Positions 10,560 through 55,207 of a stretch of DNA of 64,000 bases are shown one piece after another. The position numbers were made by a program, and so were the translations under genes. The stretch spans positions 30,361 to 94,360 of IMG/VR virus record IMGVR_UViG_3300044467_000006; one strand, given 5' to 3'. The DNA comes from a virus. A model generated the notes under the pieces. That model worked only from the letters and a program-made list of their open reading frames with translations, made no database searches and was not told where the DNA came from. Position 1 is the first letter of the stretch; each line of letters opens with the position of its first letter.

Positions 10560-12332
10560 CTATGCTGCTCCAGCCCACAAACGATTTAAAACCATCCACT
10601 TGGCTCCCGGCATAGCCCTGATCTTGGCGATGCGTTCGAGTGCTGCGGATGGATCAACGTGATAGTCACTAAGAATCTCAGCGACGTGATGCTCGTTGAC
10701 GTGCTCTACCCATTGGTCGAAAATCTGTGCGCCACGATCTCCGAGACTGGGCATGTAACGAAGACGATCGTGAGGGCTCATCTTGGTAAATTTCTGGCCA
10801 GTCCATGCGCGAAGGTAGAACGGAATGAAGCTGTTTTCGTCACCAGACGGATCGAAGCCAGAGCCCGCTAGAGCGCTACCGTGGTCGATAAGGCGAACGA
10901 TCTTGTTATCAGGATCGGCCATGAGATTCTGGCTGTGGCGGTCTGGATTGCCTAGCACGTAATCGATGAAAGACCACTTAAATAAGGTGCTGTTCTGGCG
11001 GTACGGTTCCATGATACGGGTCGGTAGGTTAGGATCTTCCTTCTTCTTCTGACCTAGGTTGTGGAAGTTAATAGGTAGAAGCTCCATTGCGGCTGTCTGG
11101 TGGTTGTTTACCAAAACGAGGTCGGCTCTTGGGAATGAATCGCCAATGCCAATGTAATCAGCAACATGCCAAAAAGCAGCTTCGCGCTCAGACTGAGAAG
11201 CATCAATCTGGCTAACTCCACTTGCGGGACTATTCTTGCCAGAACCCGGCTTGAGGAGGTAGATTTTCTTGGTCTGTGGGTCCTTGGCGAGCATAGTCCC
11301 CTTGGAGTGCTTGCCATTGAGCTTGACAGGGTTGATGAAACCGCCGTTGGCTGCACGCTGAATCGCGTTAGCAACTTCTGTAGCCTCAGACCGGGCTGGT
11401 GTGATCTTGTAGGACTCTACGTTAAGCGAGCTTTCATCCTTAAGGAGATTCGAATCCTTCAAGAAGGTGTCGAGGCGGAAGAGGTTGTCGGCGTCTGGAG
11501 CAATGTGGTACGCGGCCAATACCGCTTCAGGAATCGTATCCACTTCTTCCAGCAAGTTGCGGGCAGCAGAGATCGAAATGCCGTTTGCCTTACTCATGGA
11601 CAACATACGACACGCAGCGTCGATATGACGATGTAGATTAGCGGCGTATCCCAGTTGCTCCATAGCGGCTTCCTCATACCCCTCAAGGTCCATCCAACCA
11701 TCAAGATTGGGCTCTTGCTTGGCCAAATAGCGAGAAGGGACTAGGGTGGGTTCGCTGCGAGCTAGCTTAGTGGGTCGAGGAGCGGGCTGAGCTTCTTCTG
11801 GATCTAGACCGTGAGAGTAGGACTTGTAGGCAAAGTCGAATGAGCCCGGTGAATCGTCGTTGTTGTCACGCCAACTAAAGGGCGACCTGTAAGCTCTCCC
11901 TGTCTGCTCGGCCTCATAAGCTAAGTTGTATTGGGCAGCGAGCTTCTCATGTAGGTGGTGAGCTAGTGTGGAGTGCTTCCCTCCCTTGACCCTAGTAAGG
12001 CCCATCTTGTTGCGAGCATGGGCATAGAGGGCAGTGTACATCGCCGCTCCAATTCCCTTCTCGCGGTGTTCTGGCTTGACAGAGCTAGCGCCAATACGGA
12101 TGTAGGGAGCAAATGGGACCGCGAGTAGCTTACCAACAACTTCATTGGGATCGGTAACACTGACGGAAACAGTCGGAGTCCCGCTTTCGCCAACATCTTC
12201 AGCAATCGTGAGTTTATGGTCAGCCTTGAGATGTTCTGGCAGAAGATGGCTGTAGTCGTGGCTCTCCCTCGCCTCGTCGTACTTGCCGGGAGGAATGTCC
12301 TTGATAGCCGCCTTGGATAGATACGTTCTCAT
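10560..12332 (-). CDS. GNAT-like domain fused to HipA/PI3K-type kinase-like domain
   Basis: 590 aa. Residues 20-140 form an acetyltransferase-like unit: HDYSHLLPEHLKA lead-in, SVKPEHREKGIGAAMY (acetyl-CoA loop), then HSTLAHHLHEKLAAQYNL. LARSE and LAKQE tags follow near 195-210. Residues about 320-590 look like a kinase fold: KIYLLKPGSG (beta-3 Lys), SEREAAFWHVADYIGI (helix-C Glu), and FIDYVLGNPDRHSQNLM, with catalytic D464, N469 and metal Asp in RLIDHGS (D483). One of four such kinases in the window. Its start shares a base with the small gene upstream. Target unknown; packaging is inferred. Confidence 0.75.
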   Translation of the reverse strand: MRTYLSKAAIKDIPPGKYDEARESHDYSHLLPEHLKADHKLTIAEDVGESGTPTVSVSVTDPNEVVGKLLAVPFAPYIRIGASSVKPEHREKGIGAAMYTALYAHARNKMGLTRVKGGKHSTLAHHLHEKLAAQYNLAYEAEQTGRAYRSPFSWRDNNDDSPGSFDFAYKSYSHGLDPEEAQPAPRPTKLARSEPTLVPSRYLAKQEPNLDGWMDLEGYEEAAMEQLGYAANLHRHIDAACRMLSMSKANGISISAARNLLEEVDTIPEAVLAAYHIAPDADNLFRLDTFLKDSNLLKDESSLNVESYKITPARSEATEVANAIQRAANGGFINPVKLNGKHSKGTMLAKDPQTKKIYLLKPGSGKNSPASGVSQIDASQSEREAAFWHVADYIGIGDSFPRADLVLVNNHQTAAMELLPINFHNLGQKKKEDPNLPTRIMEPYRQNSTLFKWSFIDYVLGNPDRHSQNLMADPDNKIVRLIDHGSALAGSGFDPSGDENSFIPFYLRAWTGQKFTKMSPHDRLRYMPSLGDRGAQIFDQWVEHVNEHHVAEILSDYHVDPSAALERIAKIRAMPGAKWMVLNRLWAGAA

Positions 12333-12548: not shown

Positions 12549-13694
12549 TTACCTATTCCAAACGTGTAGCGGCACTTGATAGTCTTGCATTACACCGTGC
12601 TGTTCATACCACTCTGGGCGAGAACTAATGTCGTCTAGCTTCTTGACTCGCTCTGAAAAGTTATTCCAAACGTGCTCCTTCATGCGCGGCTCTTTAAGGC
12701 CAGAGAGCCTACTGGCCATGGTTGCAACAACTTGATCGCGCACTCTAGGCCACCAGCCGGTTACAGCCGGGATGAGATCAGGCGAGTGGAATGGCGGATA
12801 ACCGTGTAGCCGCGCAGCTTGCCCCAGCTTCTCAAAAGCTCTGGAGTGGAAGTAACCCGTGAGATTATCAAATTGTTTACCCCATGCATTTCCTTCGTCG
12901 CGCTTCTCCTGCGGTACAGTCTCTAAATCGCCAAAGACATTATGAGCCTTCGCCGGGACTCCTTTGTGGGAAGCATGGTATTGGAAGCTTCGTCCGTGGT
13001 CGATAGACATCAGCTTGGATTTGCGCGGGATGCCGTACTCATCTACAGAGCCCTTCGGGAAGACAAGGAGGTTGGCAGTGTGCCTGTCGAGGTTGTTCGA
13101 CAGGAAGTCCATGATGCCCATCTTGAAAGCGTCGGCGTGCATACGCTCGTCATACTCATTAGGGTCCATGTTCTGAACCCAATCAGCATGGGGTGCCATG
13201 TGGACTACTAGGCCGGGATGCTTGTCAAAGCCCGGCCCCATGTCGTGCTCTGAAACATGAACGGCTTGGTGAAGGTGCCCTACATCAGCAGCATGCCAGA
13301 GAGACTGGCTGGTCATCTCTGCCCACCCCTGAATCGGATGAGTTTGCCAGAACGATGCCTTCTCGGGTACCGCTTCGTGGTATGGCTTCACCATGAACAT
13401 GTCGCCATTCGGAAGGCTGTCTGCCCTCGGCACTTTGTACATGACCTTGGGAGTTTGCCCATGCAGAGTAGTTGGACCGGCGCGCATCAACGGAGTAGCG
13501 CCAGAGAGAGCCTCTCGGTAAACAGCGACAGCGGGATTGTGAGTGCGAGGATGAGCGTCGAGATCGAAGGTGTGGTCAACCGCGTCCATCCCATGAGGAG
13601 AGGTCTCTTGGCGAACCATATCGAAGTCGCCAGAGGCAATAGACTTAGCTAGAATGCCTAGTCCTAGTCGCTTTTGGAATTGTCCTAGCCCCAT
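12549..13694 (-). CDS. Kinase-like protein K2
   Basis: 381 aa. Kinase-type motifs in order: FMVKPYHEA (K103), GWAEM (E126), IMDFLSNNLDRHTANLLV (D203, N208) and LMSIDHGRSFQY (D232). This NxDRHxxN/IDHG layout matches HipA/PI3-4-kinase-like folds. It shares FMVKPY, GWAEM, DFL-N-DR and DxGRSxQY with the protein at 16070-17188, so the two are paralogs. The C-terminal 130 residues are helical. Followed after 4 nt by S2; its ATG overlaps the stop of the ART-like gene. Kinase activity is predicted, substrate unknown. Confidence 0.75.
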   Translation of the reverse strand: MGLGQFQKRLGLGILAKSIASGDFDMVRQETSPHGMDAVDHTFDLDAHPRTHNPAVAVYREALSGATPLMRAGPTTLHGQTPKVMYKVPRADSLPNGDMFMVKPYHEAVPEKASFWQTHPIQGWAEMTSQSLWHAADVGHLHQAVHVSEHDMGPGFDKHPGLVVHMAPHADWVQNMDPNEYDERMHADAFKMGIMDFLSNNLDRHTANLLVFPKGSVDEYGIPRKSKLMSIDHGRSFQYHASHKGVPAKAHNVFGDLETVPQEKRDEGNAWGKQFDNLTGYFHSRAFEKLGQAARLHGYPPFHSPDLIPAVTGWWPRVRDQVVATMASRLSGLKEPRMKEHVWNNFSERVKKLDDISSRPEWYEQHGVMQDYQVPLHVWNR

Positions 13695-16069: not shown

Positions 16070-17188
16070 CTACTCCTCCAAGGTCCGCATAGGGACCGAA
16101 GCTCTCGACCATTGAGCTTTGTGTGAGCCGTTTTGGATGTTGTCGTTCATGCCTTCGACGTACGCCTTACACCCCAATGAATCCGAATCTGACATGACCC
16201 GGTCCAGAACCGCCGCTCTATCAGCGAAGGACTTAATCAAGTGGCAAGCCAAAGGAGCGTGCTTGATCCCGGCAACATGAGTATGAAACTCTCGGCTGAT
16301 AGCGGGCTTGTTGTCTACCCACCACTTGGCCACTGTCGGCATTGACTCTCCAAGACAATTTTGGAGCCTGAAGAGCTTGTATCCCGGAGCTTGGACGTAA
16401 TCAAAAAGGTGGTCTACGCCATTGTCTCGCTCGGCAAAACGGTTGGGCGACATGTACTGCATCGAACGACCGTTGTCGATAGCGAGCAGCCCCTGCGCCA
16501 CCGCTGGAGTGCCCGGGATGTTAGCAGGAGCAAGATTAACCATGAGGTTTCTGCCGCTACGGTCTTGGTGGTTCAGTAGGAAGTCCAGAGTAGCAAGTTT
16601 AAGCGCGTTGGTTTTGACATACGACGGCATTTGTACAACGCCATGATGGGAATGCCAACTCCAAGGCTCCGTTTTTGCTCCATCGAGCAACTCGGGGTCC
16701 ATAGAACAAGACGGGTAGTGATCCTCATGTAATTCTACTGCCAGCAACGGAAGCCCCTTGTCGTTGGGATACTGGAAAGTGTGGACATTCATGGCATTCG
16801 GTCCCAGTCCGCTCTTGTGAAGGATGCCGTGCCAAGCCATTTCAGCCCAACCAGATAGCGGCAGTTTCCCTTGATGCCAACCACGTAGATACTCATAGTA
16901 GGGTTTAACCATGAAGAGCGAACTAGGCATAACGCGGCCTTCCTCGTCCCTAGCCCCGCCCACCCGGAAATGCTGTTTTTCTGTTGCGCCACTACCATAC
17001 ATGTCACTTAACGACTTTAGGACGTTGTGAGTAGGGTTGCTGAGAAACTTAGATCGGAACAAGGTCATAGAATCTTGTGCCGACGGGTCAACGAATTGAG
17101 GAGAAGCGTGGAAGTCGGGATCCACCAAAAGCCTGCCGCCCTCGTGATCGCTAGCGTCCAACAGCTTCATTAGCCCTGCATTTGGCAT
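16070..17188 (-). CDS. Kinase-like protein K1
   Basis: 372 aa. Motifs in order: LFMVKPYYE (K95), LSGWAEMAWH (E116), LKLATLDFLLNHQDRSGRNL (D209, N214), LLAIDNGRSMQY (D238). The usual His of the DRH motif is Ser here, and IDHG has become IDNG, while the Asp and Asn residues expected to bind Mg-ATP remain. Paralog of K2, with the small gene S1 directly downstream. Substrate unknown; localisation in the virion is inferred from the gene cluster. Confidence 0.75.
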   Translation of the reverse strand: MPNAGLMKLLDASDHEGGRLLVDPDFHASPQFVDPSAQDSMTLFRSKFLSNPTHNVLKSLSDMYGSGATEKQHFRVGGARDEEGRVMPSSLFMVKPYYEYLRGWHQGKLPLSGWAEMAWHGILHKSGLGPNAMNVHTFQYPNDKGLPLLAVELHEDHYPSCSMDPELLDGAKTEPWSWHSHHGVVQMPSYVKTNALKLATLDFLLNHQDRSGRNLMVNLAPANIPGTPAVAQGLLAIDNGRSMQYMSPNRFAERDNGVDHLFDYVQAPGYKLFRLQNCLGESMPTVAKWWVDNKPAISREFHTHVAGIKHAPLACHLIKSFADRAAVLDRVMSDSDSLGCKAYVEGMNDNIQNGSHKAQWSRASVPMRTLEE

Positions 17189-17189
17189 G

Positions 17190-20100
17190 TTAGCTCCGAT
17201 TTACAGCAACGTCGTATCCGCCCCACTTGCCGTCGATGGGCGCGTTCGGGGCAGACTCCCATGCCGCTTCAGTTGGATATTTGGCCGATGGATAGTTGGG
17301 AGTTGCTTCGTAGTTAAGGTTGTGCTTGACTGCCAATTTGTTCCACAAGCCATGAGCCAGCGAGGAATGAATCAACCCTCGTAGGTGCGTAGCTCCCCAA
17401 TGCTTGGTGGCACTTGCCATTAGGCTCTCGTACATGGGAGTCCCCAGCCCCTTGCCGGTGTGTTCGTCGTTGATGTTGGCAAGGTCGATCTGGGCATACT
17501 TACGAGTCTCGTTGTTCCTGATAACTGGAGTATCATCCACGAACAACGACGCTCCACCGACGATGCGATCCCGATGGTAGACGTTTGCGATAGTTGAAGG
17601 ACCGAACGTTCCGTTGCTCGCGTGTAAGGTCATCCTGTATCCAGCGTTGCGGTGCTCTGGCGTCAAGTAGTGGGTTGCGTCGTAAATGCGTTCGCCACCC
17701 TGAACTCTAGGATTTTCAAGTGGGGGTAGCGTCGCAATCGACTTGGCTAGCTCTTCGTAGGTCGGCAGTTCTTCAAACTTGCGGACAATAGAGGTGTGGA
17801 CCTGCTTGCCCACCAAATCTCCGCCGTAACCGCCGCTGTCGTTTTCTTCGGCATGCGGATCGGTTCCAGAGAAATACCTGTCATCATCCATGTCATAGCC
17901 CATCTTAGCCGGAATCGCGGTATACGTAGTCGGCAGCCAGCCCGGGGGTTCGGCGGGATCGAGATCGCGGAGTTTGGCAGCCGCATCGTGCCCGGTGATT
18001 CGCACTTTGATGTTCGGGCCATGCTGCTGACGAAGGTGCTCGTGGAATGCCTCTAGAATAGCCTCGTGAGGGTCTACGTTTTTGCCGAAAGCAATCTCGT
18101 TAATCTTGTCAAGATGATCCGACGGCATATTGGAGAGAGTCTCTAAACTGCTCGCCTTCCAGAAGTAAAACATCTGTGGAGGATTCACCCTTCCGTTCGT
18201 GATTTTTGCCTGTTCAAGCGCATGCTTGTAGTTGGCGGTAGCACCATGCCAAGAGAGGCCGGCCTTGTCCTGCGGACGGAAGTCTGACTGAATCTCAGAA
18301 ATAAAGACCTTCCCATTACTATCTACAGGACGATAACGGACCCACCCGAGAGTGTGGTTGTCGAGAGGGTGGATGTCCTTCTTACCGCGAATAAGCTTCT
18401 TGAAGGTTGCCCAGACGCCAGATGCCTTCATCTGCTTGACGTGCTCGTCGGTTAGGTTGACTTGGAAGACGCTGTCTGCATCGCGCCTAACATGCTGCTG
18501 AGCCCCACCGTATTTTGCAGACCCGACATTGAACTCCTTGACAGGCAAGGAATCGATATACTTCTGGACACTTTCGGTCGAAACGAAATCGGACTTCTTC
18601 TTGACCGGGCCTGTCGGACGATTCTTTGGAGGAATCTTTGCGATCTCCTCGGGGGTCATATCCCTCATTTCGCGGGCACGGTCATAATTGAGTTGCTTGG
18701 GAAGCTCGTTAACGTGAGCCCTCCCTCCACCGGCAGTATCAATAAGGTCGCGGACCTTACGCCAAATGGCACTGCCGAATCGAACGACAACGTGAGGAGA
18801 CTTCGCTCGATAATGCGCGTTAGGGGACGACTCCTTCATAAGTTCCCCGATGGCCTTACCTAAAGAAACAGCGGTGTGTTCGGTTAGCCACTGAGGATCG
18901 AGCCCGTAATATTGCAAGAGTTGATCTTGCTGAGCCATCTTACTATGAAGGTCTTTAACCCATGCCTCTGGAGCATGCGGAGATTCTGCCAGATAATTGT
19001 AGAATGCGTGAGCTTTCTGTTGCGCGGTATTCCTTGCTCCTTGCCAGTGCTCGTCTTCTCCCCAGTTACCTTCTGGCATAACAGCGCGGGCCTTTTCGAT
19101 CATCTTGTTGACCGTGCTCTCGGGAAGATTGGAACCTCTCAGCAGTTCTCTATAAAAGACACTGTCGAACGGCCCGCGATCAATAGCGTCATCTCTCCAA
19201 GCTGGGTTTGCCTTGGGGTTGTTTAAGAAGCTTAAGGTCTCTAATTCGGAATCATTGCCAGCAGCAAGGTGCTTGTTCCAAATAGTCTCCAACACATTCT
19301 CGGGGATATGTTTGCTTGTAACAGCCTCGGCGGTGGCTTGTGTGACAGGCGATACTTCAAAATGCCCATCGTTTAGCATCTTATTCCAATGTTCGGGCGC
19401 CAATTTGCTACCGTAGGATTGCAGGAGGTGACGTAATGCCTCGTCGTGCTGGCCTTTGCTCCAAGGGACATTGCCTTGAGAAGCAACTTGGTAAATTGTA
19501 TACCCATTGTCATCGTATTGGTAATGACCTTCATTGTCTAAAGCTGGATTTCGGTTGAACACTATCGGCTTCATATCCAAAATGGCCGAAGCATGCTCCG
19601 AAGTAAAGTTAGGGTGCTCCATCAAAGGAAAGACGGAAGCAACCTGCTTTGCAGTAGACATCAAGTGACTAATGTGGGCAGGTGTCAAAGCCGGGGAACG
19701 GGCTAGATTGTTCTGGACGCCTGCCTTGAATTGGGGAAGGCTCTCTTCGCCCCAGTCGCTATCTCGGCGGAATCCTTCTGGATTGCCGGATGGCGAGGCG
19801 GATGTGAACTCGGGGCGGGAAAGAACGTAATCAATCCATTCCGGCTTGGCGTCAGAGCGATTGAGAATGCTATCAATGATTGAGTGACGCTTGGAATTTC
19901 CCAAGAGCTTGACCGCATTTCCGTGATCAACACTCCGAACGAACTCCACGATCGCGCCAACGTCCGGGTCTTGCGGCGGTCGTTGTAAAAGGTAATCAGT
20001 CAGTCGGTCGTCTACGCTCTTATCCTTTAGCCCAAGGGCATCTCTCCAATAAAATGGATCGCTTTCCGTTCTGTCATTGTATCGGTCTATGTTTCCCCAC

Positions 20101-22793
20101 GGAAAGCGCGGATGGTTCAACCCGAAGACCGCGTTTGCTTGGTGCTCGGGCAGGGCGTAATTCACACACTGAGCGTGCTTGTCTAGCAATGCATGGAAAG
20201 CCTGTGTAGTCACCTTACCCTTAAGAATGTCGAACAAGCTTAGGTTGAGAAAAGGGTAGGCAAAAGGATTAGATGTATGCACAGCGTGGGGGCTGTCATA
20301 TTCGTTACGCAAAATACCGTTTTCGTCCAATCTCCAATAACTATACTGATTGCGCTCGCGCGGAGTAAACGCAGACGCCAGTGCGTCCTGATGGGCCTCC
20401 GCAAAAATTTTCTGACGCTCATCTACGTTCCCCATCGCGTTGCTTAGCGCAAAATCTGCAATGCTGGGGGTGAGCTTATTAGCATCCGCTAGAGATTGAA
20501 GGAACTCTTGACTAGGAGAATCTAAGTAGAACTGCATTGCTAGATCGTCATCAAAAAATCTAGAGTTGACGATGTCGTCGTGGCTAAGATCATCTCGAAG
20601 ATCCTTCGCAAGACCCAACCAATGTTCTTTGGTAATGAGAGGGTGATTGAATAGGGTCTTGGACAGTTCGCGGCGGACGAAGGGGTGCTTGGTGGTCTTG
20701 CCTGCCGCCACATGCTCTAGAAGGGCTGTAAACTTGGCAGCCGGGAAGCCCGGAGCGTGAGCCAGCATGGCCAGATACAAGCCCTTCTTGATATTGCCCC
20801 TGAAGGCAGCAGCCGGAACTCCCCCTTCGATCATCTTCTTTACATCACCCAACACCCCTTGTAGTTCTCTGGTGAGATAGCGAGAAGAGGCGGTGTGCTC
20901 GGAAGAGAATTTTTCTAGAGAACCTACTAGATCCTTGGCGTAAGCCAAAACATTGAGTTTTGCTTTGTCAGACAAAGGAACTTCTGGAGTTACTTTGCTC
21001 AGGGCTATCTTTAAAAAACCAGAACGCAAGCTCCCTCTTTCACGAGATTTAAGATAGAAATCGGCGTCCTCAAGCATCGACGGAGCGATCTCGTCTGGAC
21101 GCTCTGTAAACCAACTCATCTTAAGCGAAGGCAGTCTCTGAAGAATATCCTTGCGGGCTGAGCCAACGGCAGTGTCAGCGAAGGAGGAGTGGGCTTGAAT
21201 AGCTTGAGAGAGATTGTCGATCCCGTTGGTGAACCACTGCGTATTTGCCCAAGCGGGCAATGCATCGGGACCTACTCTCGCAATAGAACTTAAAACTCCC
21301 TCGCGCTCCGGGAAAAACATGGGGTCCTCACGCCCCGCTTCATCAGTGAAGGCGGCGTCGAGGATTCCGGGCGTCATCTTAGGATGATTTAAGATACCGG
21401 CATATTGGTGACGGAGGGGTTGCCGGGGGTTGGCTATCAACGCGCGGAGATGTTTGCCCCCGAATCCGGGCAAGTCCATGATGTCCGAAATGTAGCTCCA
21501 ACCCGCTCCGTAAGGAAGCGTTCGAATTGCATCCATGACAGGATCGGTGCCCTCTTCCTCCTCCTTCGCTAGTGGAATACCGATTTCTCCATCAAGTCTG
21601 GCGAATTCGTGAAGCTTAAGAGCATAGCTCGACATAGCGTCATCGAAACTGCCGGGATGCCTAGCGCTAGGATTGGGAGACCTTGGCCGTGGCTCTTGTG
21701 CCCAACTCAAGCCGTACTTGTCGGCAATGCTCTTGTGGACAGCGTCAGCGGATAGGCTATGGTTCCCGCCAGTAAGTAGTTGGGCGTCATGGTTGTTCTT
21801 ACCGTGCGCGATAAGAGCTTCGTAGGCAGCCTGCCCCAGAGCTTGCCCTCTGTGAGCCTTATCTGTACGGGCAAAATTGATGTCGATTGAACGGTCGTGC
21901 TCGTTGAAGAGAGCTTCGACCTTGCTAAGAAACTTGTGTGAAGTCCCGTCGGGCTTGTGCTGATGCACCCAAGCCGCCATGAGGGAAGGAGTCTCATCGT
22001 AACGACGGTGAGTGGTACGCACTTCAAGTTGATAGCCAGCTTCGCGCTGCTCGGGAGTCAAGAGGTGGCCGTAGTCGAAGAAGCGGACGTGATTCCGCTC
22101 TGCACTCTGAGTCTGCGGACCCACAGGGATAGTTTCTAGTCCTTCGCTCTTGCCAAGGCGATACGTATATGGACCGTAGCGGTCATCTATAGATTCGGGC
22201 TCTTGCTGTTCAGTTCCCCATGACTCTGGCGAATACTGCTTGCCTCCAAAGCCGCCCATTTCGGCAGCATCGGGCTCCACCAAACTCTGATTTTCGAGCA
22301 GGTTGGGCATTGCTTCGTAACTGAGGTTGTGCTTGTCGGCTAGGTATTGGTGAGCTTTGTGCGCATAAGTAGAATGAGCGCCCCCAACAACGTGGGTTGC
22401 TCCAAGAGCATTCCTAGCGTGAGACATGACCGCTTCGTAGAGCTTGCGCCCGAAGTACAAACGCTTGCCGTTGTGCTCGCGCGGGGCACCTCGGACTTCT
22501 GATTGAGCAATACGTAGAAACTTACGCCCGTCCTTCTCGGCGGGAAATACATCGCTCTCAACATAACCCAGACGCTCGCCCCCTTGGTCATACAAAGATG
22601 CGATAAGCCATCCAGCCTTGTCTTCAGGCTTTTCGCCAATAGTTGGCTGCCAGCGGACGTTGATATAGGCCCCCGGGACAGCTTCGTGATGAATGGGGTC
22701 CAAAATGTGGGTGTAGTCATGGATACCCTTCCCCCTTTGCGGAGCTTCGGGTCCAACTGGGATATTGGCGAGCGTTTTATGAAGTGGGAACAT
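17190..22793 (-). CDS. Giant polyvalent protein: three GNAT-like domains, helical repeats, EIQSD domain
   Basis: 1867 aa, the largest protein here. GNAT-like units lie near residues 40-160, 250-365 and 1690-1830; each follows a DYTHIL/DYGHLLTPEQ/DATHYLTPEH lead-in and contains KRLYFGRKLYE, GQALGQAAYEA or GKGLGTPMYES with a downstream HS-A-H helix. Between them run about 900 residues of alpha-helical repeats with NHPxxT turns (LNHPKMTPGIL, LMEHPNFTSEHAS). Residues about 1375-1640 carry the domain shared with the 650-aa protein (GWVRYRPVDSNG, ISEIQSDF). An LGKSE tag lies near 215. Overlaps the next upstream gene by one base. Probably an injected internal virion polyprotein; the acetyl acceptor is unknown. 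Confidence 0.7.
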   Translation of the reverse strand: MFPLHKTLANIPVGPEAPQRGKGIHDYTHILDPIHHEAVPGAYINVRWQPTIGEKPEDKAGWLIASLYDQGGERLGYVESDVFPAEKDGRKFLRIAQSEVRGAPREHNGKRLYFGRKLYEAVMSHARNALGATHVVGGAHSTYAHKAHQYLADKHNLSYEAMPNLLENQSLVEPDAAEMGGFGGKQYSPESWGTEQQEPESIDDRYGPYTYRLGKSEGLETIPVGPQTQSAERNHVRFFDYGHLLTPEQREAGYQLEVRTTHRRYDETPSLMAAWVHQHKPDGTSHKFLSKVEALFNEHDRSIDINFARTDKAHRGQALGQAAYEALIAHGKNNHDAQLLTGGNHSLSADAVHKSIADKYGLSWAQEPRPRSPNPSARHPGSFDDAMSSYALKLHEFARLDGEIGIPLAKEEEEGTDPVMDAIRTLPYGAGWSYISDIMDLPGFGGKHLRALIANPRQPLRHQYAGILNHPKMTPGILDAAFTDEAGREDPMFFPEREGVLSSIARVGPDALPAWANTQWFTNGIDNLSQAIQAHSSFADTAVGSARKDILQRLPSLKMSWFTERPDEIAPSMLEDADFYLKSRERGSLRSGFLKIALSKVTPEVPLSDKAKLNVLAYAKDLVGSLEKFSSEHTASSRYLTRELQGVLGDVKKMIEGGVPAAAFRGNIKKGLYLAMLAHAPGFPAAKFTALLEHVAAGKTTKHPFVRRELSKTLFNHPLITKEHWLGLAKDLRDDLSHDDIVNSRFFDDDLAMQFYLDSPSQEFLQSLADANKLTPSIADFALSNAMGNVDERQKIFAEAHQDALASAFTPRERNQYSYWRLDENGILRNEYDSPHAVHTSNPFAYPFLNLSLFDILKGKVTTQAFHALLDKHAQCVNYALPEHQANAVFGLNHPRFPWGNIDRYNDRTESDPFYWRDALGLKDKSVDDRLTDYLLQRPPQDPDVGAIVEFVRSVDHGNAVKLLGNSKRHSIIDSILNRSDAKPEWIDYVLSRPEFTSASPSGNPEGFRRDSDWGEESLPQFKAGVQNNLARSPALTPAHISHLMSTAKQVASVFPLMEHPNFTSEHASAILDMKPIVFNRNPALDNEGHYQYDDNGYTIYQVASQGNVPWSKGQHDEALRHLLQSYGSKLAPEHWNKMLNDGHFEVSPVTQATAEAVTSKHIPENVLETIWNKHLAAGNDSELETLSFLNNPKANPAWRDDAIDRGPFDSVFYRELLRGSNLPESTVNKMIEKARAVMPEGNWGEDEHWQGARNTAQQKAHAFYNYLAESPHAPEAWVKDLHSKMAQQDQLLQYYGLDPQWLTEHTAVSLGKAIGELMKESSPNAHYRAKSPHVVVRFGSAIWRKVRDLIDTAGGGRAHVNELPKQLNYDRAREMRDMTPEEIAKIPPKNRPTGPVKKKSDFVSTESVQKYIDSLPVKEFNVGSAKYGGAQQHVRRDADSVFQVNLTDEHVKQMKASGVWATFKKLIRGKKDIHPLDNHTLGWVRYRPVDSNGKVFISEIQSDFRPQDKAGLSWHGATANYKHALEQAKITNGRVNPPQMFYFWKASSLETLSNMPSDHLDKINEIAFGKNVDPHEAILEAFHEHLRQQHGPNIKVRITGHDAAAKLRDLDPAEPPGWLPTTYTAIPAKMGYDMDDDRYFSGTDPHAEENDSGGYGGDLVGKQVHTSIVRKFEELPTYEELAKSIATLPPLENPRVQGGERIYDATHYLTPEHRNAGYRMTLHASNGTFGPSTIANVYHRDRIVGGASLFVDDTPVIRNNETRKYAQIDLANINDEHTGKGLGTPMYESLMASATKHWGATHLRGLIHSSLAHGLWNKLAVKHNLNYEATPNYPSAKYPTEAAWESAPNAPIDGKWGGYDVAVNRS

Positions 22794-23935
22794 TACATCA
22801 CCCCGGTAAATAATTTCGTTCCGTAGGCCGACCTTACCTTGTTCACGAGAATGTCCTTCTGCTCCTTCAACATCGTAATGCGAGTGTCGTAGATTTGCGG
22901 ACCCGGGGTGCTGATGCTCTGACTGATGCCGTCCATGCCGACGCTATGGCTAGAGTTACGAGCGTTGGTGGTAGCCAGCAAACCAAGTACATCAATTGCA
23001 GCCGTCATGCCGACTAGCTCATTAATGAGAGTAGGAAGCCTGCCATCGGGGAAGCCGCACATGTAGTCACATTGCCAGTAGGCGGGGATCCAAGGATTCT
23101 GGCCGAGAATCGACAAGAATGCGGAGCCGCCAGCGTTGCCACCCCAACCACTATTGGTAGGAGCCATGAAGCCGCTCGACATAAACGCGATAGTCATGGG
23201 TACAATGTTGATTTGGCCCGTAGTGATATAAGCAGTTTCGATCCAGTCTGGAGGAACGATGTAAAGATCGGAGCCGTTAGATGCCGTCACTGCAAACTTA
23301 AGAAGAGAGATAACCGGCTTGTCTGGCAGCATTAGGTAGCCAAGAGAAGCGTACGCCTGCCGATCAAAGGGGAACTTCTTGCGAAAGGTCTTGGGCATGA
23401 TGTTGATATGAGTCTCGGCCTCTACGACAGCAACGGCTCGCTTGATGGAGTCTTCTAGGATGGCGTCGGTAAAAACTTGACGCTTCCCCGTCATAGGGTC
23501 AATAGCGTAAGACATTAGCGGAATACCGAAAAGGTGACGCATCTTGAGCAAGGAGGGGTCGATAAGAGGCTCTAGAATGCCCCACGAGTCAGCCGTGGCT
23601 CCGATAGGGTAGACCGCACCAAGCCCGCCTTTTTCACGGAAGTTGTTTTCGGTGAAGTTAGAGGTAGCCGCCAGAGAGGTAGCTTGGAAGGCGGCAGGAG
23701 TAGACTCTTCTGCGGTGTTGTCAATGGCTACAATTACATACCAGTTACCGGCGATACCGCTACTATCAACATAAAAAAACTTGCCAGCCGCAGAATCAAA
23801 AACTAAAGGGTTAGCTAGGTTGTGAATGATAGTAGCCAAGGGAGAAAAGGGGCCGCTCTCAGCTGAAGCTCTCTCGATGCGATACGCATAGATGTCGGTG
23901 TCGCTACTTGGAAGCCACGAAATTTTGTTACCCAT
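22793..23935 (-). CDS. Head-tail connector/neck-like structural protein with FN3-like N-terminus
   Basis: 380 aa. Residues 1-90 read like a fibronectin type III unit (ISWLPSSDTDIYAYRIERAS, NWYVIVAIDN). Residues about 120-330 (DAILEDSIKRAVAVVEAETH, IVPPDWIETAYIT) are reminiscent of head-completion proteins whose N-terminal helices pack as DAxIxxxIxxAxxxVE. The assignment is by pattern only. A late motif lies 33 nt upstream, inside the end of the preceding gene. Confidence 0.5.
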   Translation of the reverse strand: MGNKISWLPSSDTDIYAYRIERASAESGPFSPLATIIHNLANPLVFDSAAGKFFYVDSSGIAGNWYVIVAIDNTAEESTPAAFQATSLAATSNFTENNFREKGGLGAVYPIGATADSWGILEPLIDPSLLKMRHLFGIPLMSYAIDPMTGKRQVFTDAILEDSIKRAVAVVEAETHINIMPKTFRKKFPFDRQAYASLGYLMLPDKPVISLLKFAVTASNGSDLYIVPPDWIETAYITTGQINIVPMTIAFMSSGFMAPTNSGWGGNAGGSAFLSILGQNPWIPAYWQCDYMCGFPDGRLPTLINELVGMTAAIDVLGLLATTNARNSSHSVGMDGISQSISTPGPQIYDTRITMLKEQKDILVNKVRSAYGTKLFTGVM

Positions 23936-27705: not shown

Positions 27706-29130
27706 TTAGCCCTTGACGTTATCCACGAGCACATTTTTTCTGGGCTGGGGAACCGTGAGTGTGAGAAAGCGGAAGTGCGCCTCCGGGATCGAGAGGTCGG
27801 TCACAGCTAGCTTGAGGCGGCTGTAAGGCGATAGCTCACGAACTTCCATCGTGTCTCCTTGGATGAGGTAGCCAGTCACGAAGCCCGGGATCTTGGCCCC
27901 GGTGTCATCGAACTGAACCACGTTCGCGCTACGATTGACGCGGCCAATCCACTTGGTCGTGGTCCCGCCAACTTCCGAGCGGTACACGTTGAAGTAGAGC
28001 GGTAGTGCGCCACCGCCAGTGGTGATGTCGAAGGTGATACGGTCACCAGCGACAGACGCCACGGTTAGAACTGCGGACGCAACGCTTTCCCCAAGCTCGT
28101 TACACGCGGTAACGATGTAGTTGTAGTTACCCGTGAGCAGCGCGCCAGTTGCAGGGCTTGCGCTGTTACCAAGGGTAGGAGCACCGGGAACGCCGGGGCG
28201 GGAAGCCTGCGGACGAGTCTTGCCAGAGAGGAAGCGGGACGCTTCAAGCTGGACGGTACCACCAGAAACCCACTGACGACGGAGGTCCGCGCCAGAGGCA
28301 TCTTGCGGTGAACCGGCAAGGATGATGCGTTCCTTTTCGAACGCTAGCTTGTTGTATGCAGCGAGCGACCTCGGGTCGAGGATGAGTCGATCCGCGTTAC
28401 CCATGTTCATCGCAGAGCGAACAGCCGCGTCTTCGATGTTGGCTTGGGTTAGGACGCCCGTACCGTGCGAGCCGTAGCCCGGAACGGTGGTGAGGGAAGC
28501 GATGCCGCCACCCTGAATGACAACGGTTTCGTCGGAGCCGTACTCGCCAAACATGAGATCCTTGGCGTTACGCTGCGCATCCGACTGACGAACCTGCTCG
28601 CCAAGTCCGAGGACGTTGGGAAGCGGGGCGATAGTACCCGGGTTGCCGTCGAACACGCCGATGTTGCTGAAGCCTTCCTTACCACGGAAGAGGTCGAACT
28701 CAACGTCAGCCGAAATCTTCTTGGCTGCCGAAGACGCAGCACGCTCAGAGGCGTCCTTGCCGTCAACGGTGTTGACCATGTTGGCCACTAGCGTCACGCG
28801 ACGAACGTGTGAGTAGTAGCACATGGGAACCACGACACGGACGTAGTCGTCCGTGAATTCCTGACCAACAGCGCCTTCGATAACAGCCGTCCCGCCGAAG
28901 CCGCCGTAGCTAAGCTGACGATCAAACTGAACGAGGGTGCTCTTCGCGGGGCTCACCTTAAGCATCTTCTGAAGCTTAATGTGTGAGTCATCGAAGGTGA
29001 CATTGTTCATAACCGGGGAGAGATCCTCGGTCTGTAGAGCGCTGCCTTGGACGAGTGAACCGGGGGCCGCATCATATCCGCCCGCCTCAAGTGCCTTAAC
29101 TAGCGACTGTAGTTGTTCCAGTGCGTTCAT
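27706..29130 (-). CDS. Major capsid protein with Ig/FN3-like insertion
   Basis: 474 aa from MNALEQLQSLVKAL (AAGGAG upstream). Features expected of a HK97-fold capsid protein of large phages: a long N-terminal arm, VVVPMCYYSHVRRVTLVANM (E-loop/P-domain region), SAMNMGNADRLILDPRSLA and a C-terminal LSIPEAHFRFLTLTVPQP. Residues about 300-400 hold an inserted beta-domain (GNYNYIVTACNELGESVAS, YFNVYRSE), like Ig/FN3 decorations on phage capsids. Followed by a strong terminator and preceded by scaffold-like and decoration-like genes. Family identity is from context and pattern. Confidence 0.75.
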   Translation of the reverse strand: MNALEQLQSLVKALEAGGYDAAPGSLVQGSALQTEDLSPVMNNVTFDDSHIKLQKMLKVSPAKSTLVQFDRQLSYGGFGGTAVIEGAVGQEFTDDYVRVVVPMCYYSHVRRVTLVANMVNTVDGKDASERAASSAAKKISADVEFDLFRGKEGFSNIGVFDGNPGTIAPLPNVLGLGEQVRQSDAQRNAKDLMFGEYGSDETVVIQGGGIASLTTVPGYGSHGTGVLTQANIEDAAVRSAMNMGNADRLILDPRSLAAYNKLAFEKERIILAGSPQDASGADLRRQWVSGGTVQLEASRFLSGKTRPQASRPGVPGAPTLGNSASPATGALLTGNYNYIVTACNELGESVASAVLTVASVAGDRITFDITTGGGALPLYFNVYRSEVGGTTTKWIGRVNRSANVVQFDDTGAKIPGFVTGYLIQGDTMEVRELSPYSRLKLAVTDLSIPEAHFRFLTLTVPQPRKNVLVDNVKG

Positions 29131-29140
29131 TGTATTCTCC

Positions 29141-30022
29141 TTACTTGAGAAGGTGCTCGATGGCGGCGAGATTAACTCGGCCCTCATAGAACCCCGTGAC
29201 TAGGTCGCGGTCCGACTTCTTGAAATCTGCGCTTCGCGTAAGCTCACTGAGCTTGGCGGTGATTTCTGCGGGACTGACCGGCTTCTTCGGTGCTTCTTCC
29301 GACTTAGCGACGTAAGAAGTACCAGTGATTGCTTTCTGCATCGGCTTGTTGACGACAGTGGTAACGATCTTGGTTAGTGCCTCGATCTGTGCGTGTAGGT
29401 CAGCGATTTCTGACTTGCTGAATTCCCCGCCGTTACCAGCCTGAGAAACTCCGATGTTCTTGCCTTCGCCCATTGCCATCGGGGGAGCCCCAGCAGGCGA
29501 CGGACTTGCACCGGGAGGGGGAGGAGCACCCGCGCCTGCGCCCGGAGGGGCAACAGGAGCCGACGGACCAGCACCCTGCCCACCACCCATGACTTGCATG
29601 AGTGCAGCCTTCGCTGCTAGGTAGTGAGCCTTGAGTTCCTCTGGAGGAAGCTGAGCATACTCTTGCTCAAGCGCGGCCGGATCAACTGGCCCGCCTTCGC
29701 CCCCACCTTCTTGACCGGGAGCGCCACCCTCCATACCGGGAGGAGGAGCTTCGCCACCAGCCCCCGGAGGTGCGCCACCTTCAGCGCCCATCGGAGGTGC
29801 GCCACCGCCCGCAGACGGAGGACCGCCCGCACTAGGAGATCCACCCGCAGACGGGGAGCCTCCAGCGGCAGATGCAGAGCCCATACCGGGGGACGGAGAA
29901 CCGTCTTCCTCGCGGGCCTTTGCTAGCCTGTTTTGCGCGTCAGCCAGAATTTCGTTGAGTTCACCGTCGAGTTCACCGAGGATGTTGTCAAGTTCCTGAC
30001 TTGATACCTTGAGATTTGCCAT
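29141..30022 (-). CDS. Putative scaffold/internal head protein, Pro-Gly-Ala rich
   Basis: 293 aa. A helical start (LDNILGELDGELNEILADAQ), about 100 residues of Gly/Pro/Ala low complexity, then a coiled-coil-like segment (SEIADLHAQIEALTKIVTTV) and a helical C-terminus. Its position directly before the capsid gene and its composition fit a scaffold or capsid-assembly protein. Two KSE tags (FSKSE, VAKSE) flank the helical part and may be processing sites. Function inferred. Confidence 0.55.
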   Translation of the reverse strand: MANLKVSSQELDNILGELDGELNEILADAQNRLAKAREEDGSPSPGMGSASAAGGSPSAGGSPSAGGPPSAGGGAPPMGAEGGAPPGAGGEAPPPGMEGGAPGQEGGGEGGPVDPAALEQEYAQLPPEELKAHYLAAKAALMQVMGGGQGAGPSAPVAPPGAGAGAPPPPGASPSPAGAPPMAMGEGKNIGVSQAGNGGEFSKSEIADLHAQIEALTKIVTTVVNKPMQKAITGTSYVAKSEEAPKKPVSPAEITAKLSELTRSADFKKSDRDLVTGFYEGRVNLAAIEHLLK

Positions 30023-32244: not shown

Positions 32245-35200
32245 TTATCCCTTAATGTATTTGCCCATATGCTTGTGGATATGTGGCTCCATGTAGTCCA
32301 AGATGCGCTTCTGGAAATCTTGGTCTGTTTCTCCATCGCCTCGCTCTGGGCCATGCCACTGTCGAGACAATGCATCTAAACTATAGCCTAAGCTGTTTAA
32401 ATACCCCGCCGGGTCTGCACCTTTGGAGATTCCGCGGGCCAACCTATTGGCCCCTTCGTCCCTATTGCGATGAGCCTCTCGCCTCTCCGAATTTCCTCGG
32501 CGGCGAATTGAGTTATTGAATTCAGTAACGGCTTCATCAAAAGTCATATCGGCGTGATGAGCAAATTTCTTGATGATGTTCTCGGCTTCTCCCGGGCCAC
32601 GATTCGACATGAGAAGCTCGTAAGGAACGGGCGCTTCGCCTTTTCTTGAAGCCGACTCATGGTCCTTACTTACTGCAAGGCTAGCGAGGTCGTAGTCCTG
32701 CTCAGCTTCGGGCAAATTTTGGATACGAGCCTTTACCTCTTTAACCCGTTCTGCGTGACGAGCAAGGACAGAGAAATCCTTGTATGCCCTCTCTCGAATC
32801 TGAGGGGCATGCATTCCTGTCCATCCCGAATTTGCAAACCCCAGATAAGACGTGATTTCGTCCACCGATGCGTCTGGCTCTACAGACGCATAGTGTTGGA
32901 GATTCTCTAGCCGCTGCCGTGCCGCCCGAGCTACGGAAACAGGAACATCGTGATCTTGGATCTCTTTAGTAAACTTGTCCTTGTCGATGCCCATCAGCCA
33001 TTTTCTGGCATCGGGATGCAAGCGGTTGTCATTGTGTCCGGCGGCTTTTGCCGCTTCCTGTGCAGGAACCATATAATCGCTTCGATCGTCGCCTACACCA
33101 CGAGAAGGGAAAGAGTCGCCATGGTCAATGAGGTAGATGTTATCTCCTTTAGCCCCACCGAACATGAAATTGTTTAAGTGGCGGTCGCGAGCACCAAGCA
33201 TCTGATCTGCGAGAGCCAATTTGTGAAGCTTGCCGTTCTGAATATTCTTTACGAAAGCGCTATTTTGCTCCTCGTCCCCATCGCGCTGGTGAGCGGCGTT
33301 GGGAATAGCCTCATGAACGGACCACCAATCATTGGGCCTTGGCTCTTCGTTGGTCTTCAGGTTGGGGTTTTGGAAGATTGAAGTAGGAGCTACGTGCTCG
33401 CCCAAGCCAAGATGATGCATCATATTGTGAAACATGATCTCGTTAAGCGCACTGGATCTGCCATCTCGCTGAGTGGAAAGAGTCTTGATGAAAGCTTGCT
33501 TGCCATTAGGTAGCTTGACCCATCGGCCTTCGGAGATACCCGACTTAAAATGTTCTGGCGAAAACTGGGCTGCGGCATTGTGATCAAAGCCGTGGACCAT
33601 CTGTCTCTGGTAATCATTGATGATTAGATTTGAAGGCACGTGACGATCGGCATCCACAACGCCCGGTGGCATGTCGAGGAACTCTGGCTCCGAGTGAACT
33701 TCAGCGGAACCGTCAATGCCCCAGCGCTCCATGTGCTCTGGAGAGAAAGATCCAAGATGTTCATGAGGAACCATCAGCCATTCACCGACAGGTGCGTCGG
33801 GGTGGGCTGGAGCCGTGCCAACGATAGCCATTTTGCGACCACCTTCAGCCCGGGTACCATCCTTGTTGAAATAGATAGTGGCAGAACCCGGCTTGATCTT
33901 TTGGTCCTTGTGAATGATGGTCGGCTGTGAGGTCGGGGGCCATTCCTCTTCGGGCTGAGCCGGGAGAGTGCCCTTTAGAAGATTGGAGCCTGACTTGAAA
34001 AGACGACGTGCTTCAACCTCGAACGCTTCCATCTTGCGAATAGAAGTTTCGTCATAGCTGCGGGTTCTGTCGTTGGTCATCAGCGCGGGGGCACCCCAAG
34101 TGTAAAAGAAGAAACTGGCCGGTCCTTCGCCAAAATCCTTCTCAACACGCTTGGTCGCCTTGGCAATGCGAACCGTAAGCGGCTCGCCGTACTGGTCCTG
34201 AGATTTCTGCATGTTCCACATTTTAGACGGATCGGTTAGGTCGTGGGGGATGCCTTCCTCGTCCATGATTTGGCCAACCGACTTAAAGAATGGGTCGTGG
34301 GCCGTCCCCATGTTGAAGTTGTCAGTATCTCGACCAAGCAAAGCTTCATAGTGCGGATACGCAAGCCATTGAAGCCAGAACGCGGGACCAACCGCTTGCA
34401 TCTCGCGGCCCTTGAAATGATCAGGCCACATTTCGTGAACCTTCTGGACAGCAGGAGCCTTCTGGAAGAAATGATGGTCGATACCGCGCAAAAGAGTTTC
34501 GCCACGGACAGGGGTAAGGGCGTTGAAAACCTGTTTAGCTTGCTCTGAGTTTTTATCGGAGATGTTAAAGAGAGCGCGAAGTTGGTGACGGTCGGGAATA
34601 ATCATATTACCCTGCCCCATCATCAAACCCATGTATCGAGCGAGCTTAGGCCCAAAACCATACATGAAGGAGTCGGCTCCCTCGCTTTGCTTCTTCTGCA
34701 TGATATAGTCAACGAACGCTCGGCCGTCGTCCTTGACTTCCCGCTGTAGAGCGACCATGAAGGGGTGAAATCTGTGGTAATTCAGGAGCGGTCTGCCTTG
34801 CGGCCGATCCGCTAGAACAGCGCCAGACGTGGCGGGGTCGTAACCCGCTCGGCGCTTGGTGCGGGATGCGTCATACTCGATTCCGCCCTTCTCTTGGGTA
34901 CGACCAACATAGAAGTCGCGGAAAAATTCAGGAGGGGTAGTCTTGTTGAGCCAGCGGTGAAAGTGCTCTGCGTCCTCTGGTTTGATACCTTCGGGCTTGC
35001 TAAAGACATCGCCGTGCTTCGCTCGGAAATCCATATAGTGCCCATAGTAAAGCTCCTGCATAGGCACGCTGGTATTTGGGGACATTGCAGCAAAGATGGC
35101 GGCATGGGCAATAACGCTAGACGGTAGCTGGCCCTGCGAAGCCATCTTGTTGAGCACCAGCCACGAGGACATGGCGCGCTGCCAAGGTTTATGAACGTAG

Positions 35201-36519
35201 TTGACAATCTTCTCCCTGCGCTCTGGGTCGAGCATGGGAGAAAGAGAGGGACTGTCTGCATTTAAAACGTTGAGAAAGTGCTCGTCTTGTCCGTAATCAT
35301 ACAGCTTGAGCGGCGTTGTTGGAGTGCTCAACTTCTGACTTAGCAGTTCTCCCCTAGCAGTTAAGCTTCTAGAAGCCTTTGTCTTGGGAGGAACTTCCAG
35401 TGGATTGGCCGCTTCAGGACGAGGGTGATACATCTTGGGTTCTTGGGGCTGGGCTTCGGGAGCCGTAGTCTCTGGAGGAGCAGAAGCCATAGAAGCAAGA
35501 GCTTGCTCTGCTCCGCGCTTCTCGGCTTTCTGGACTGCTCCCCAGACGCCCATGGCCTTTTCAACCCAGTCGCCAACCTGACGGGTACGGATGTCCCCTA
35601 CTAAATCAGTGAAATGGTCTAGAAAGCTCTCGTTGATTTCGGGTAGCTGAAACTTGAAGAACTTAAGCATGTCGGACTTGGAGTAGCCGTGCTCAACAGG
35701 GCTGTAGTCTCGAACGGCAGCCCTAAGCTGGTTCTTGAACTTCTCCTTGTCCTTCATGCCCATGATATCTTCTCGGGCAAGCGCCGCGCCACCCGTGAGA
35801 GTAGAAGGAGCGGCATCGCTAGCTCCACCGGTCATGGTCTTGTTAAGTGAGGGATCTCGGGCCTCAACTTCAACATAACGAAGATCCATTGCGTGGCTAC
35901 CAAGTTTCTGGTGTCCCGGGCGCTCACTCTTGACGGTGTCCTCTTCTAGTAGGCGAGCTAACAGACTCCTCTCGGCTTGCTTCTCGGTAATGGGCTTTGG
36001 AGCATTGGGGTCCGACACGAGGCCCGAGATCGCTGCTTTGTTGGCTGGCTTAAGGGTTATAGCCACAGCCCTACAGATGGTTTTAACTAGCTTTTGCCCT
36101 TCTTTTTTAAGTGTTGAGCCTTCCACGCTGTAGCGGGCAAGAATAGGCTCATTGTGAGTTACAGAGTCCCTGATGATAGCGGCAATTGCCTTAGCGCCCG
36201 CATGCCCAGAACCATCAAATAGGCGAGCTTTGATATACACGAAAGGTAGATTGGTTGCCTTCCAGTAGGCTTCTTGGCGCTTGTCGTCACAATCCTCTTT
36301 GCTAAAAATCTTCTTGGCAAAAATGATTTTGCCCACAGTGTCATTGCCTGATGCACCAGAGGAATCCGATCCTCGATGTTCCCAATTAAGGGTGCCCACT
36401 CCAGAGGTGAAGTCGCTAATGTCCGCTCCGTTGATGTCAAGGATTTCGCCGCTGCTATCAATAGCACTAGAGCAAGCAATCCCGTCGATAATCATACTGT
36501 TAGTGGAAGTCGCGGCCAT
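32245..36519 (-). CDS. Prohead protease fused to HhH-GPD-like and kinase-like domains
   Basis: 1424 aa. Residues 1-175 match a prohead serine protease (GIACSSAIDSSGEILD, LNWEHRG, ARYSVEGSTLKKEG with S131, VAITLKPANK). Residues about 400-720 resemble a HhH-GPD DNA-glycosylase core in polyvalent proteins: IFAAMSPNTSVPMQELYYG, YGFGPKLARYM (K625) and IIPDRHQLRALF (D643). Residues about 990-1200 are a kinase-like domain: KQAFIKTL, ALNEIMFHNM, LADQMLGARDRHLNNFMF (D1112) and IYLIDHGDSF (D1132). The protease would normally mature the capsid. Fusion of all three is very unusual and implies self-release of the rest. Confidence 0.75.
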   Translation of the reverse strand: MAATSTNSMIIDGIACSSAIDSSGEILDINGADISDFTSGVGTLNWEHRGSDSSGASGNDTVGKIIFAKKIFSKEDCDDKRQEAYWKATNLPFVYIKARLFDGSGHAGAKAIAAIIRDSVTHNEPILARYSVEGSTLKKEGQKLVKTICRAVAITLKPANKAAISGLVSDPNAPKPITEKQAERSLLARLLEEDTVKSERPGHQKLGSHAMDLRYVEVEARDPSLNKTMTGGASDAAPSTLTGGAALAREDIMGMKDKEKFKNQLRAAVRDYSPVEHGYSKSDMLKFFKFQLPEINESFLDHFTDLVGDIRTRQVGDWVEKAMGVWGAVQKAEKRGAEQALASMASAPPETTAPEAQPQEPKMYHPRPEAANPLEVPPKTKASRSLTARGELLSQKLSTPTTPLKLYDYGQDEHFLNVLNADSPSLSPMLDPERREKIVNYVHKPWQRAMSSWLVLNKMASQGQLPSSVIAHAAIFAAMSPNTSVPMQELYYGHYMDFRAKHGDVFSKPEGIKPEDAEHFHRWLNKTTPPEFFRDFYVGRTQEKGGIEYDASRTKRRAGYDPATSGAVLADRPQGRPLLNYHRFHPFMVALQREVKDDGRAFVDYIMQKKQSEGADSFMYGFGPKLARYMGLMMGQGNMIIPDRHQLRALFNISDKNSEQAKQVFNALTPVRGETLLRGIDHHFFQKAPAVQKVHEMWPDHFKGREMQAVGPAFWLQWLAYPHYEALLGRDTDNFNMGTAHDPFFKSVGQIMDEEGIPHDLTDPSKMWNMQKSQDQYGEPLTVRIAKATKRVEKDFGEGPASFFFYTWGAPALMTNDRTRSYDETSIRKMEAFEVEARRLFKSGSNLLKGTLPAQPEEEWPPTSQPTIIHKDQKIKPGSATIYFNKDGTRAEGGRKMAIVGTAPAHPDAPVGEWLMVPHEHLGSFSPEHMERWGIDGSAEVHSEPEFLDMPPGVVDADRHVPSNLIINDYQRQMVHGFDHNAAAQFSPEHFKSGISEGRWVKLPNGKQAFIKTLSTQRDGRSSALNEIMFHNMMHHLGLGEHVAPTSIFQNPNLKTNEEPRPNDWWSVHEAIPNAAHQRDGDEEQNSAFVKNIQNGKLHKLALADQMLGARDRHLNNFMFGGAKGDNIYLIDHGDSFPSRGVGDDRSDYMVPAQEAAKAAGHNDNRLHPDARKWLMGIDKDKFTKEIQDHDVPVSVARAARQRLENLQHYASVEPDASVDEITSYLGFANSGWTGMHAPQIRERAYKDFSVLARHAERVKEVKARIQNLPEAEQDYDLASLAVSKDHESASRKGEAPVPYELLMSNRGPGEAENIIKKFAHHADMTFDEAVTEFNNSIRRRGNSERREAHRNRDEGANRLARGISKGADPAGYLNSLGYSLDALSRQWHGPERGDGETDQDFQKRILDYMEPHIHKHMGKYIKG

Positions 36520-54901: not shown

Positions 54902-55207
54902 ATGAATCACCGTAACCCCAAGCAGTCCATTCTTGCTGAAAACAGGGTCACTCTTTTAAAGGAAACTGTCGTAAGGGCCATGACCGAGAGGAAGACTTAC
55001 CGGCTGGCTCTCTCAGACAAAGAGCTTTCAGAACTAGCCAAGATTCCACTCAGAAGTACCCGGCGCTATCTCAAGTGTCTGATTGATCGTGGAGTCTTTG
55101 AGGTGCAGAGGAAGAGACATCTGCATCATTCTCTGGGGTGGTGTAACGAGAGAACAATCTTCCTTACTCCCACTTACCAAATCGTTGCACAACGGAGGAA
55201 TCAATGA
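54902..55207 (+). CDS. Winged-helix DNA-binding protein, 101 aa
   Basis: Residues about 35-72 (LALSDKELSELAKIPLRSTR, then RYLKCLIDRGVFEVQRKR) form a clear helix-turn-helix and wing, as in replication-initiation or MarR/ArsR-like small regulators. The ATG follows TAGGAG in the inverted repeat. It is the natural candidate to bind the neighbouring iterons, as initiator or autorepressor. Its stop overlaps the chaperonin ATG (ATGA), so the chaperonin is co-expressed. Confidence 0.7.
   Translation: MNHRNPKQSILAENRVTLLKETVVRAMTERKTYRLALSDKELSELAKIPLRSTRRYLKCLIDRGVFEVQRKRHLHHSLGWCNERTIFLTPTYQIVAQRRNQ

What the first reader, a model, noticed from the sequence alone, without database searches (positions are those of the whole stretch)
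17190..22793. 1867-aa polyprotein with three GNAT-like domains
Three repeats of a lead-in motif (DY/DA-T/G-H-L-x-PEH...AGY) plus an acetyl-CoA-loop-like segment occur in this protein, and a fourth copy begins the GNAT-kinase at 10560. The remainder is helical repeat with NHPxxT turns plus the EIQSD-type domain. Multiplication of acetyltransferase-like units within one virion-cluster protein is striking.
Basis: partly seen in the sequence, partly recalled or inferred. Interest (0 to 1): 0.72.

Follow-up and report, generated by a model that had tools for sequence, protein, structure and literature searches.

The report
Phage head protein with three acetyltransferases
A tailed phage related to Myxococcus phage Mx1 encodes, among its head genes, one giant protein holding three copies of an acetyltransferase module that related phages have independently multiplied up to five-fold; these are probably enzymes or binding domains packed in the virus particle and injected into the host.

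Summary
The 1867-aa protein (window 17190-22793, minus strand) carries three mutually homologous GNAT domains, and a fourth starts the kinase at 10560 (pairwise z 19-28; predicted folds match GNAT structures, Z about 10-11). The phage is a distant relative of Myxococcus phage Mx1. The module (lead-in DYSHLL, GNAT core, tail YxYxLKxE) forms a family of 29 units or more, found in at least five different head-cluster genes and multiplied separately in several phages (five tandem copies in one). Its partners (ART-PolyVal, NUDIX, ParB, mCpol/GGDEF cyclases, PI3/4-like kinases) mark these as 'polyvalent' proteins, so the kind is known; the repeated GNATs are a new variant. Two qualifications: GNAT1 and GNAT2 have degenerate acetyl-CoA loops and GNAT3 lacks a conserved His, so only the kinase-linked copy looks fully equipped. 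New here: a short motif, [LIVMF]xKSE, is strongly enriched in head-cluster proteins of this lineage (32 vs 1.9 expected in relatives; 11 vs 0.6 in a hold-out set) and sits between GNAT1 and GNAT2. I propose it is a maturation-protease or linker site. Virion packaging, cleavage and acetyl transfer are inferred, not shown. Mx1 in M. xanthus is a laboratory system for testing them.

The parts
17190..22793 (-). 1867-aa polyvalent-type protein (P0001), directly downstream of the head connector gene
   Evidence: same slot as Mx1 'NUDIX hydrolase' WNM70333
22131..22778 (-). GNAT unit 1 (residues 6-221); acetyl-CoA loop degenerate (NGKRLYFG)
   Evidence: profile E 5e-41; AF2 GNAT topology, Z 10.8 to the ICL2 GNAT domain; loop census
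22143..22157 (-). LGKSE: the [LIVMF]xKSE motif, at the GNAT1/GNAT2 boundary
   Evidence: head-cluster enrichment
21582..22145 (-). GNAT unit 2 (residues 217-404); loop RGQALG
   Evidence: profile E 4e-49; Z 10.3 to EctA
18684..21593 (-). helical region with 'NHPxxT' turns (HEAT/LRV-like in character), residues 401-1370
   Evidence: no Pfam hit; turn motif enriched
17694..18608 (-). EIQSD-type domain (about residues 1396-1700), fold unknown
   Evidence: second copy in 6225-8177 (E 5e-13), third in the mCpol protein of the same phage (E 1e-13); AF2 pLDDT mostly 30-60, unreliable
17193..17744 (-). GNAT unit 3 (residues 1684-1867); loop TGKGLG, Trp at the conserved His
   Evidence: Pfam 9e-7; AF2 pLDDT 93-98 in the core; Z 10.5 to Naa10/NatC, 10.4 to Ard1
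11772..12311 (-). fourth GNAT unit, N-terminal part of the GNAT-kinase (10560-12332); loop REKGIG and conserved His intact
10560..12332 (-). GNAT plus PI3/4-kinase-like protein, orthologous to Mx1 'kinase' (38% identity over the kinase part)
22793..23935 (-). head connector/neck-type protein (phrog_772, which PHROGs labels 'tail fiber protein'), 41% identical to Mx1; the conserved upstream neighbour
27706..29187 (-). major capsid protein (56% identical to Mx1)
32245..36519 (-). prohead protease fused to a C-terminal kinase-like domain; VKSE lies just after the protease domain

Best explanation
P0001 is a head-cluster polyvalent protein of a distant relative of Myxococcus phage Mx1. Most likely it is made late, packed into the prohead, perhaps cut between domains by the prohead protease at [LIVMF]xKSE, and delivered with the DNA. 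Its GNAT modules belong to a phage-specific family whose intact members should transfer an acyl group from acyl-CoA to host (or host-defence) proteins early in infection. In this phage the kinase-linked copy is the best-equipped enzyme. GNAT3 may still bind acetyl-CoA, and GNAT1 and GNAT2 are probably non-catalytic substrate- or partner-binding copies. Shown by computation: homology, fold, gene position, module spread and motif enrichment. Inferred: packaging, cleavage, injection, catalysis and targets.
For: (1) GNAT homology and fold for all copies. (2) Position: tightly packed operon between connector and tail genes, the same slot as in Mx1 and relatives. (3) Partners typical of polyvalent proteins in the relatives: ART-PolyVal, NUDIX, ParB, mCpol, kinases. 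Iyer et al. predict that such proteins, GNATs included, are packaged and injected (PMC5512222). (4) The same GNAT unit is fused to a MuF-like protein in L008; MuF proteins are head components. (5) 19 of 29 units keep the canonical [RQ]xxGx[GA] loop, and nearly all keep HSxxAxxxH, which argues that most of the family is enzymatic. (6) [LIVMF]xKSE: Mx1 head cluster 10 vs 0.5 expected, 0 in 7335 aa of other Mx1 proteins; window 6 vs 0.6; relatives 32 vs 1.9; hold-out contigs 11 vs 0.58, maximum 4 in 300 shuffles. (7) Precedents taken from papers: phiKMV-like Rac, a phage GNAT acting on RNA polymerase alpha; SPN3US gp245 cutting after AXE.
Against: No virion proteomics for this phage or, in what I could read, for Mx1. 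GNAT1 and GNAT2 have broken loops, so the multiplied copies here may not be enzymes. P0001 has a single [LIVMF]xKSE, so cleavage at that motif would not separate GNAT3. A KSE-centred site matches neither of the published phage protease motifs exactly. The motif could be a fusion-linker scar ('KSExLEKMA') rather than a cut site. The motif was found by looking at these proteins first; only the hold-out set is free of that.
Confidence: 0.6

Rival explanations
1. The GNAT unit is a non-enzymatic packaging or docking module. It is appended to many head-cluster proteins to bring them into the prohead, and its spread and multiplication reflect binding rather than acetylation.
For: The unit is attached to at least five different genes, all in the head cluster, with a conserved non-GNAT lead-in and tail. 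Two of three copies in P0001 have degenerate loops (2/3 vs 2/26, Fisher p 0.04; 0.07 with the new units). Copy number varies freely (1-5).
Against: Most units keep both the acetyl-CoA loop and the HSxxAxxxH signature over long divergence, which a pure docking domain would not need. Many head-cluster proteins have no such unit.
Confidence: 0.22
2. The units work during assembly, acetylating the phage's own head proteins (N-termini or lysines), and are not injected effectors.
For: They are encoded in the head operon next to kinases and the protease. The nearest folds for GNAT3 include protein N-terminal acetyltransferases.
Against: Fold neighbours of GNATs are poor guides to substrate. Partner domains (ART, NUDIX, ParB, cyclases) are more typical of delivered effectors.
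Confidence: 0.12
3. The repeats are an assembly artefact or chance similarity.
For: The sequence is a metagenomic contig.
Against: Copies are about 30% identical, far from collapse-prone. The five-copy gene (L004/L005) and the three-copy gene (L017/L018) each occur in two separate contigs with different sample numbers. Similarity far exceeds shuffles.
Confidence: 0.01

Closest known systems
Polyvalent proteins of phages and conjugative elements (Iyer et al. 2017, PMC5512222)
   Same: Large multidomain protein; GNAT, ART-PolyVal, NUDIX, ParB and kinase domains in the same protein or in orthologues and operon; head-gene neighbourhood
   Different: Two to five copies of one GNAT unit with a fixed lead-in and tail; the passages I read describe two GNAT families and no multiplication
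Myxococcus phage Mx1 WNM70333 ('NUDIX hydrolase', 1479 aa)
   Same: Same gene slot after the connector; one GNAT unit, about 30% identical
   Different: One GNAT with an intact loop; has ART, NUDIX and ParB-like parts and no EIQSD domain was detected
Rac of phiKMV-like phages (PMC7552054)
   Same: Phage GNAT acting on a host protein (RNA polymerase alpha)
   Different: A separately encoded GNAT; not compared by sequence here, and no link to head packaging was looked for
SPN3US/phiKZ-type and T4 head-protein processing
   Same: Internal head proteins cut by a prohead protease after Glu within a short motif (AXE for gp245, PMC10052503)
   Different: Here the motif is [LIVMF]xKSE and cleavage is only proposed
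Tandem GNAT protein of clavulanic acid biosynthesis (PDB 2wpw/2wpx)
   Same: Two GNAT domains in one chain; best Foldseek hit (E 1e-6)
   Different: Bacterial biosynthetic protein; resemblance is of fold only (about 10% identity)

Membership tests
GNAT superfamily | GNAT fold (central mixed sheet, beta4-loop-alpha3) | tested here: met
   Models of units 1, 2 and 3; hit lists dominated by GNATs, Z 10-11; Pfam for unit 3
GNAT superfamily | Acetyl-CoA loop [RQ]xxGx[GA] (defines catalytically competent members, not the fold) | tested here: not met
   Units 1 and 2 degenerate, unit 3 keeps only GxG; kinase-linked unit canonical. I therefore call these GNAT-fold domains, not proven acetyltransferases
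GNAT superfamily | Acetyl-CoA binding or transfer | not testable with these tools
   needs a biochemical assay
Polyvalent proteins | Large multidomain protein with conflict-type enzymatic domains | tested here: met
   P0001: three GNATs, EIQSD domain, helical repeats; orthologues with ART-PolyVal, NUDIX, ParB
Polyvalent proteins | Packaged and delivered with the DNA | not testable with these tools
   only gene position and the MuF fusion in L008 speak for it
GNAT families of polyvalent proteins (Iyer 2017) | Sequence membership in one of the two described families | tested here: inconclusive
   Alice gp113 scores 4 bits with the family profile; the other family's reference protein could not be fetched
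DYSHLL-GNAT family (defined here) | Lead-in DYxHLL, GNAT core with HSxxAxxxH, tail YxYxLKxE | tested here: met
   29 units, further units; unit 3 of P0001 departs at the lead-in Tyr (DATHYL), the His and the tail

The most novel reading that the evidence does not exclude
Mx1-like phages build head-packed polyproteins out of exchangeable modules separated by a lineage-specific protease motif, [LIVMF]xKSE. The prohead protease dices them into separate effectors inside the capsid, and the GNAT unit is multiplied as an expandable cargo or binding array, with catalytic and pseudo-enzyme copies.
Probability: 0.3. Interest if true: 0.78.

Novelty: new variant of a known kind. Interest (0 to 1): 0.6.

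Why it matters
It shows a repeated amplification of one enzyme-fold module inside phage head-cluster proteins and gives a concrete, testable sign (the KSE motif) that such polyproteins may be cut and packed. The related phage Mx1 grows on a genetically tractable laboratory bacterium, so packaging, cleavage and acetylation can be tested directly.

Tried and rejected
Chance or artefact for the repeats (rejected). A single-sequence scan with GNAT3 and a scan with the connector alignment in viral contigs found no relatives. A scan for EIQSD relatives in viral contigs and a tblastn in phage records found nothing convincing, and its model is too poor to name a fold. T4-type LxE[AG] and general KxE motifs were not clearly enriched; KSE was. 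Pfam and PHROGs give no hit for the helical region. The tree of 29 units does not resolve whether the window's four copies arose in place (30% of bootstraps; long branches), while L009, L012 and L017 copies do group by protein. Alice gp113 as a family member: inconclusive.

Full report
What is there. The window is part of a 94,360-base viral record. The ORF at 17190-22793 (minus strand) encodes 1867 aa in a tightly packed run of head genes on one strand: protease, cyclase, capsid, connector, P0001, kinases. Three regions of P0001 (residues 6-221, 217-404, 1684-1867) and the N-terminal part of the gene product at 10560-12332 are homologous: every pair scores z 18.7-28.5 over shuffles. Pfam recognises the third and fourth as Acetyltransf_1. 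The other two follow through their homology to these and the family profile.

Fold. AlphaFold2 models of residues 1-430 and 1370-1867 show the GNAT order of elements in all three units, with pLDDT mostly 75-91 in the cores of units 1 and 2 and 93-98 for unit 3. The EIQSD part is not modelled reliably.

Family and relatives. The only isolate hit is Myxococcus phage Mx1, whose gene in the same slot is a GNAT + ART-PolyVal + NUDIX protein. Scans of IMG/VR and GTDB contigs gave further relatives. Capsid (about 55-58% identical), connector, kinase and other neighbours show that they are one lineage. A 29-unit alignment defines the module: lead-in kAIxDIPxG..DYSHLLxPEH, GNAT core, HSxxAxxxH, tail YxYxLKxE. 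The module sits in at least five genes: the slot after the connector, the GNAT-kinase, the mCpol gene, the end of a MuF-like gene (L008) and a GGDEF-like cyclase gene (L019). Copy numbers per protein are 5 (L005), 3 (L009, L017, window) and 2 (L012). In the tree the copies of L009, L012 and L017 group by protein, so multiplication happened more than once; the window's copies are too divergent to place.

Catalytic features. Nineteen of 29 units have the canonical acetyl-CoA loop, six keep GxG, four are degenerate, and two of those four are units 1 and 2 of P0001. Unit 3 has GxG but Trp in place of a His kept by every other unit that covers the site. The kinase-linked unit has everything. The excess of broken loops in P0001 is weak statistically (Fisher p 0.04-0.07).

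A linear motif. [LIVMF]xKSE occurs between units 1 and 2 of P0001 and across head-cluster proteins. In Mx1 it is seen 10 times in head-cluster proteins against 0.5 expected and not at all in 7335 aa of other proteins; in the window 6 against 0.6. In relatives with GNAT units masked it is seen 32 times against 1.9, and KSE ranks third of all tripeptides. In four contigs fetched afterwards it is seen 11 times against 0.58. Relatives share ancestry, so these counts are not all independent events. The motif often precedes a module as KSExLxKMA and lies just after the protease domain in the window's protease; Mx1 has RSE there. Phage head proteases such as SPN3US gp245 cut after Glu in short motifs. 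A cleavage site is my preferred reading; a linker or fusion scar, or a docking motif, is not excluded.

Mechanism and status. The best-supported account is a head-packed polyvalent protein delivered at infection, with GNATs acting on host proteins where intact and as binding domains where degenerate. Polyvalent proteins with GNATs and their proposed injection are known, as is a phage GNAT that acts on RNA polymerase alpha. The repeated, independently multiplied unit and the KSE motif are what I did not find described. Packaging, cleavage and catalysis remain untested.

Noticed in passing
G000:C1:27200-30412 (just outside the window; L023:9200-12412, minus strand): The phage's own 'mCpol slot' protein has a minimal CRISPR polymerase domain (PF18182, E 8e-11), NHP-type helical repeats and a third EIQSD domain. 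Relatives L005, L009, L012, L015 and L017 also have mCpol N-termini, some with GGDE motifs, others apparently degenerate. Panoptes papers describe mCpol as a bacterial defence enzyme, so a copy in phage head clusters is odd.
   Followed up: partly
window 30946-31668 (-): GGDEF-type cyclase gene with an intact GGDEF motif in the head cluster (E 1e-9); Mx1 has an equivalent ('nucleotide cyclase').
   Followed up: partly
window 32245-36519 and 27706-29187: The prohead protease proteins contain a segment (K-[ST]-[ML]-x-x-G..AAPSTLxxGxAL) resembling the N-terminus of the major capsid protein; the protease is also fused to a C-terminal kinase-like domain.
   Followed up: partly
window 12549-13694, 16070-17188, 10560-12332: Three related PI3/4- or HipA-like kinase genes in one head operon (16070-17188 by its similarity to 12549-13694 and its motifs only).
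   Followed up: no
window 44623-47790 and 39592-41526: The terminase and the MuF-like gene appear to carry inteins (seen from sequence only).
   Followed up: no
window 55204-57063: GroEL-like chaperonin gene (seen from sequence only).
   Followed up: no
L041:6501-14522: 2674-aa relative combining ART-PolyVal, a radical SAM domain, NUDIX and GNAT units in one head-cluster protein.
   Followed up: no
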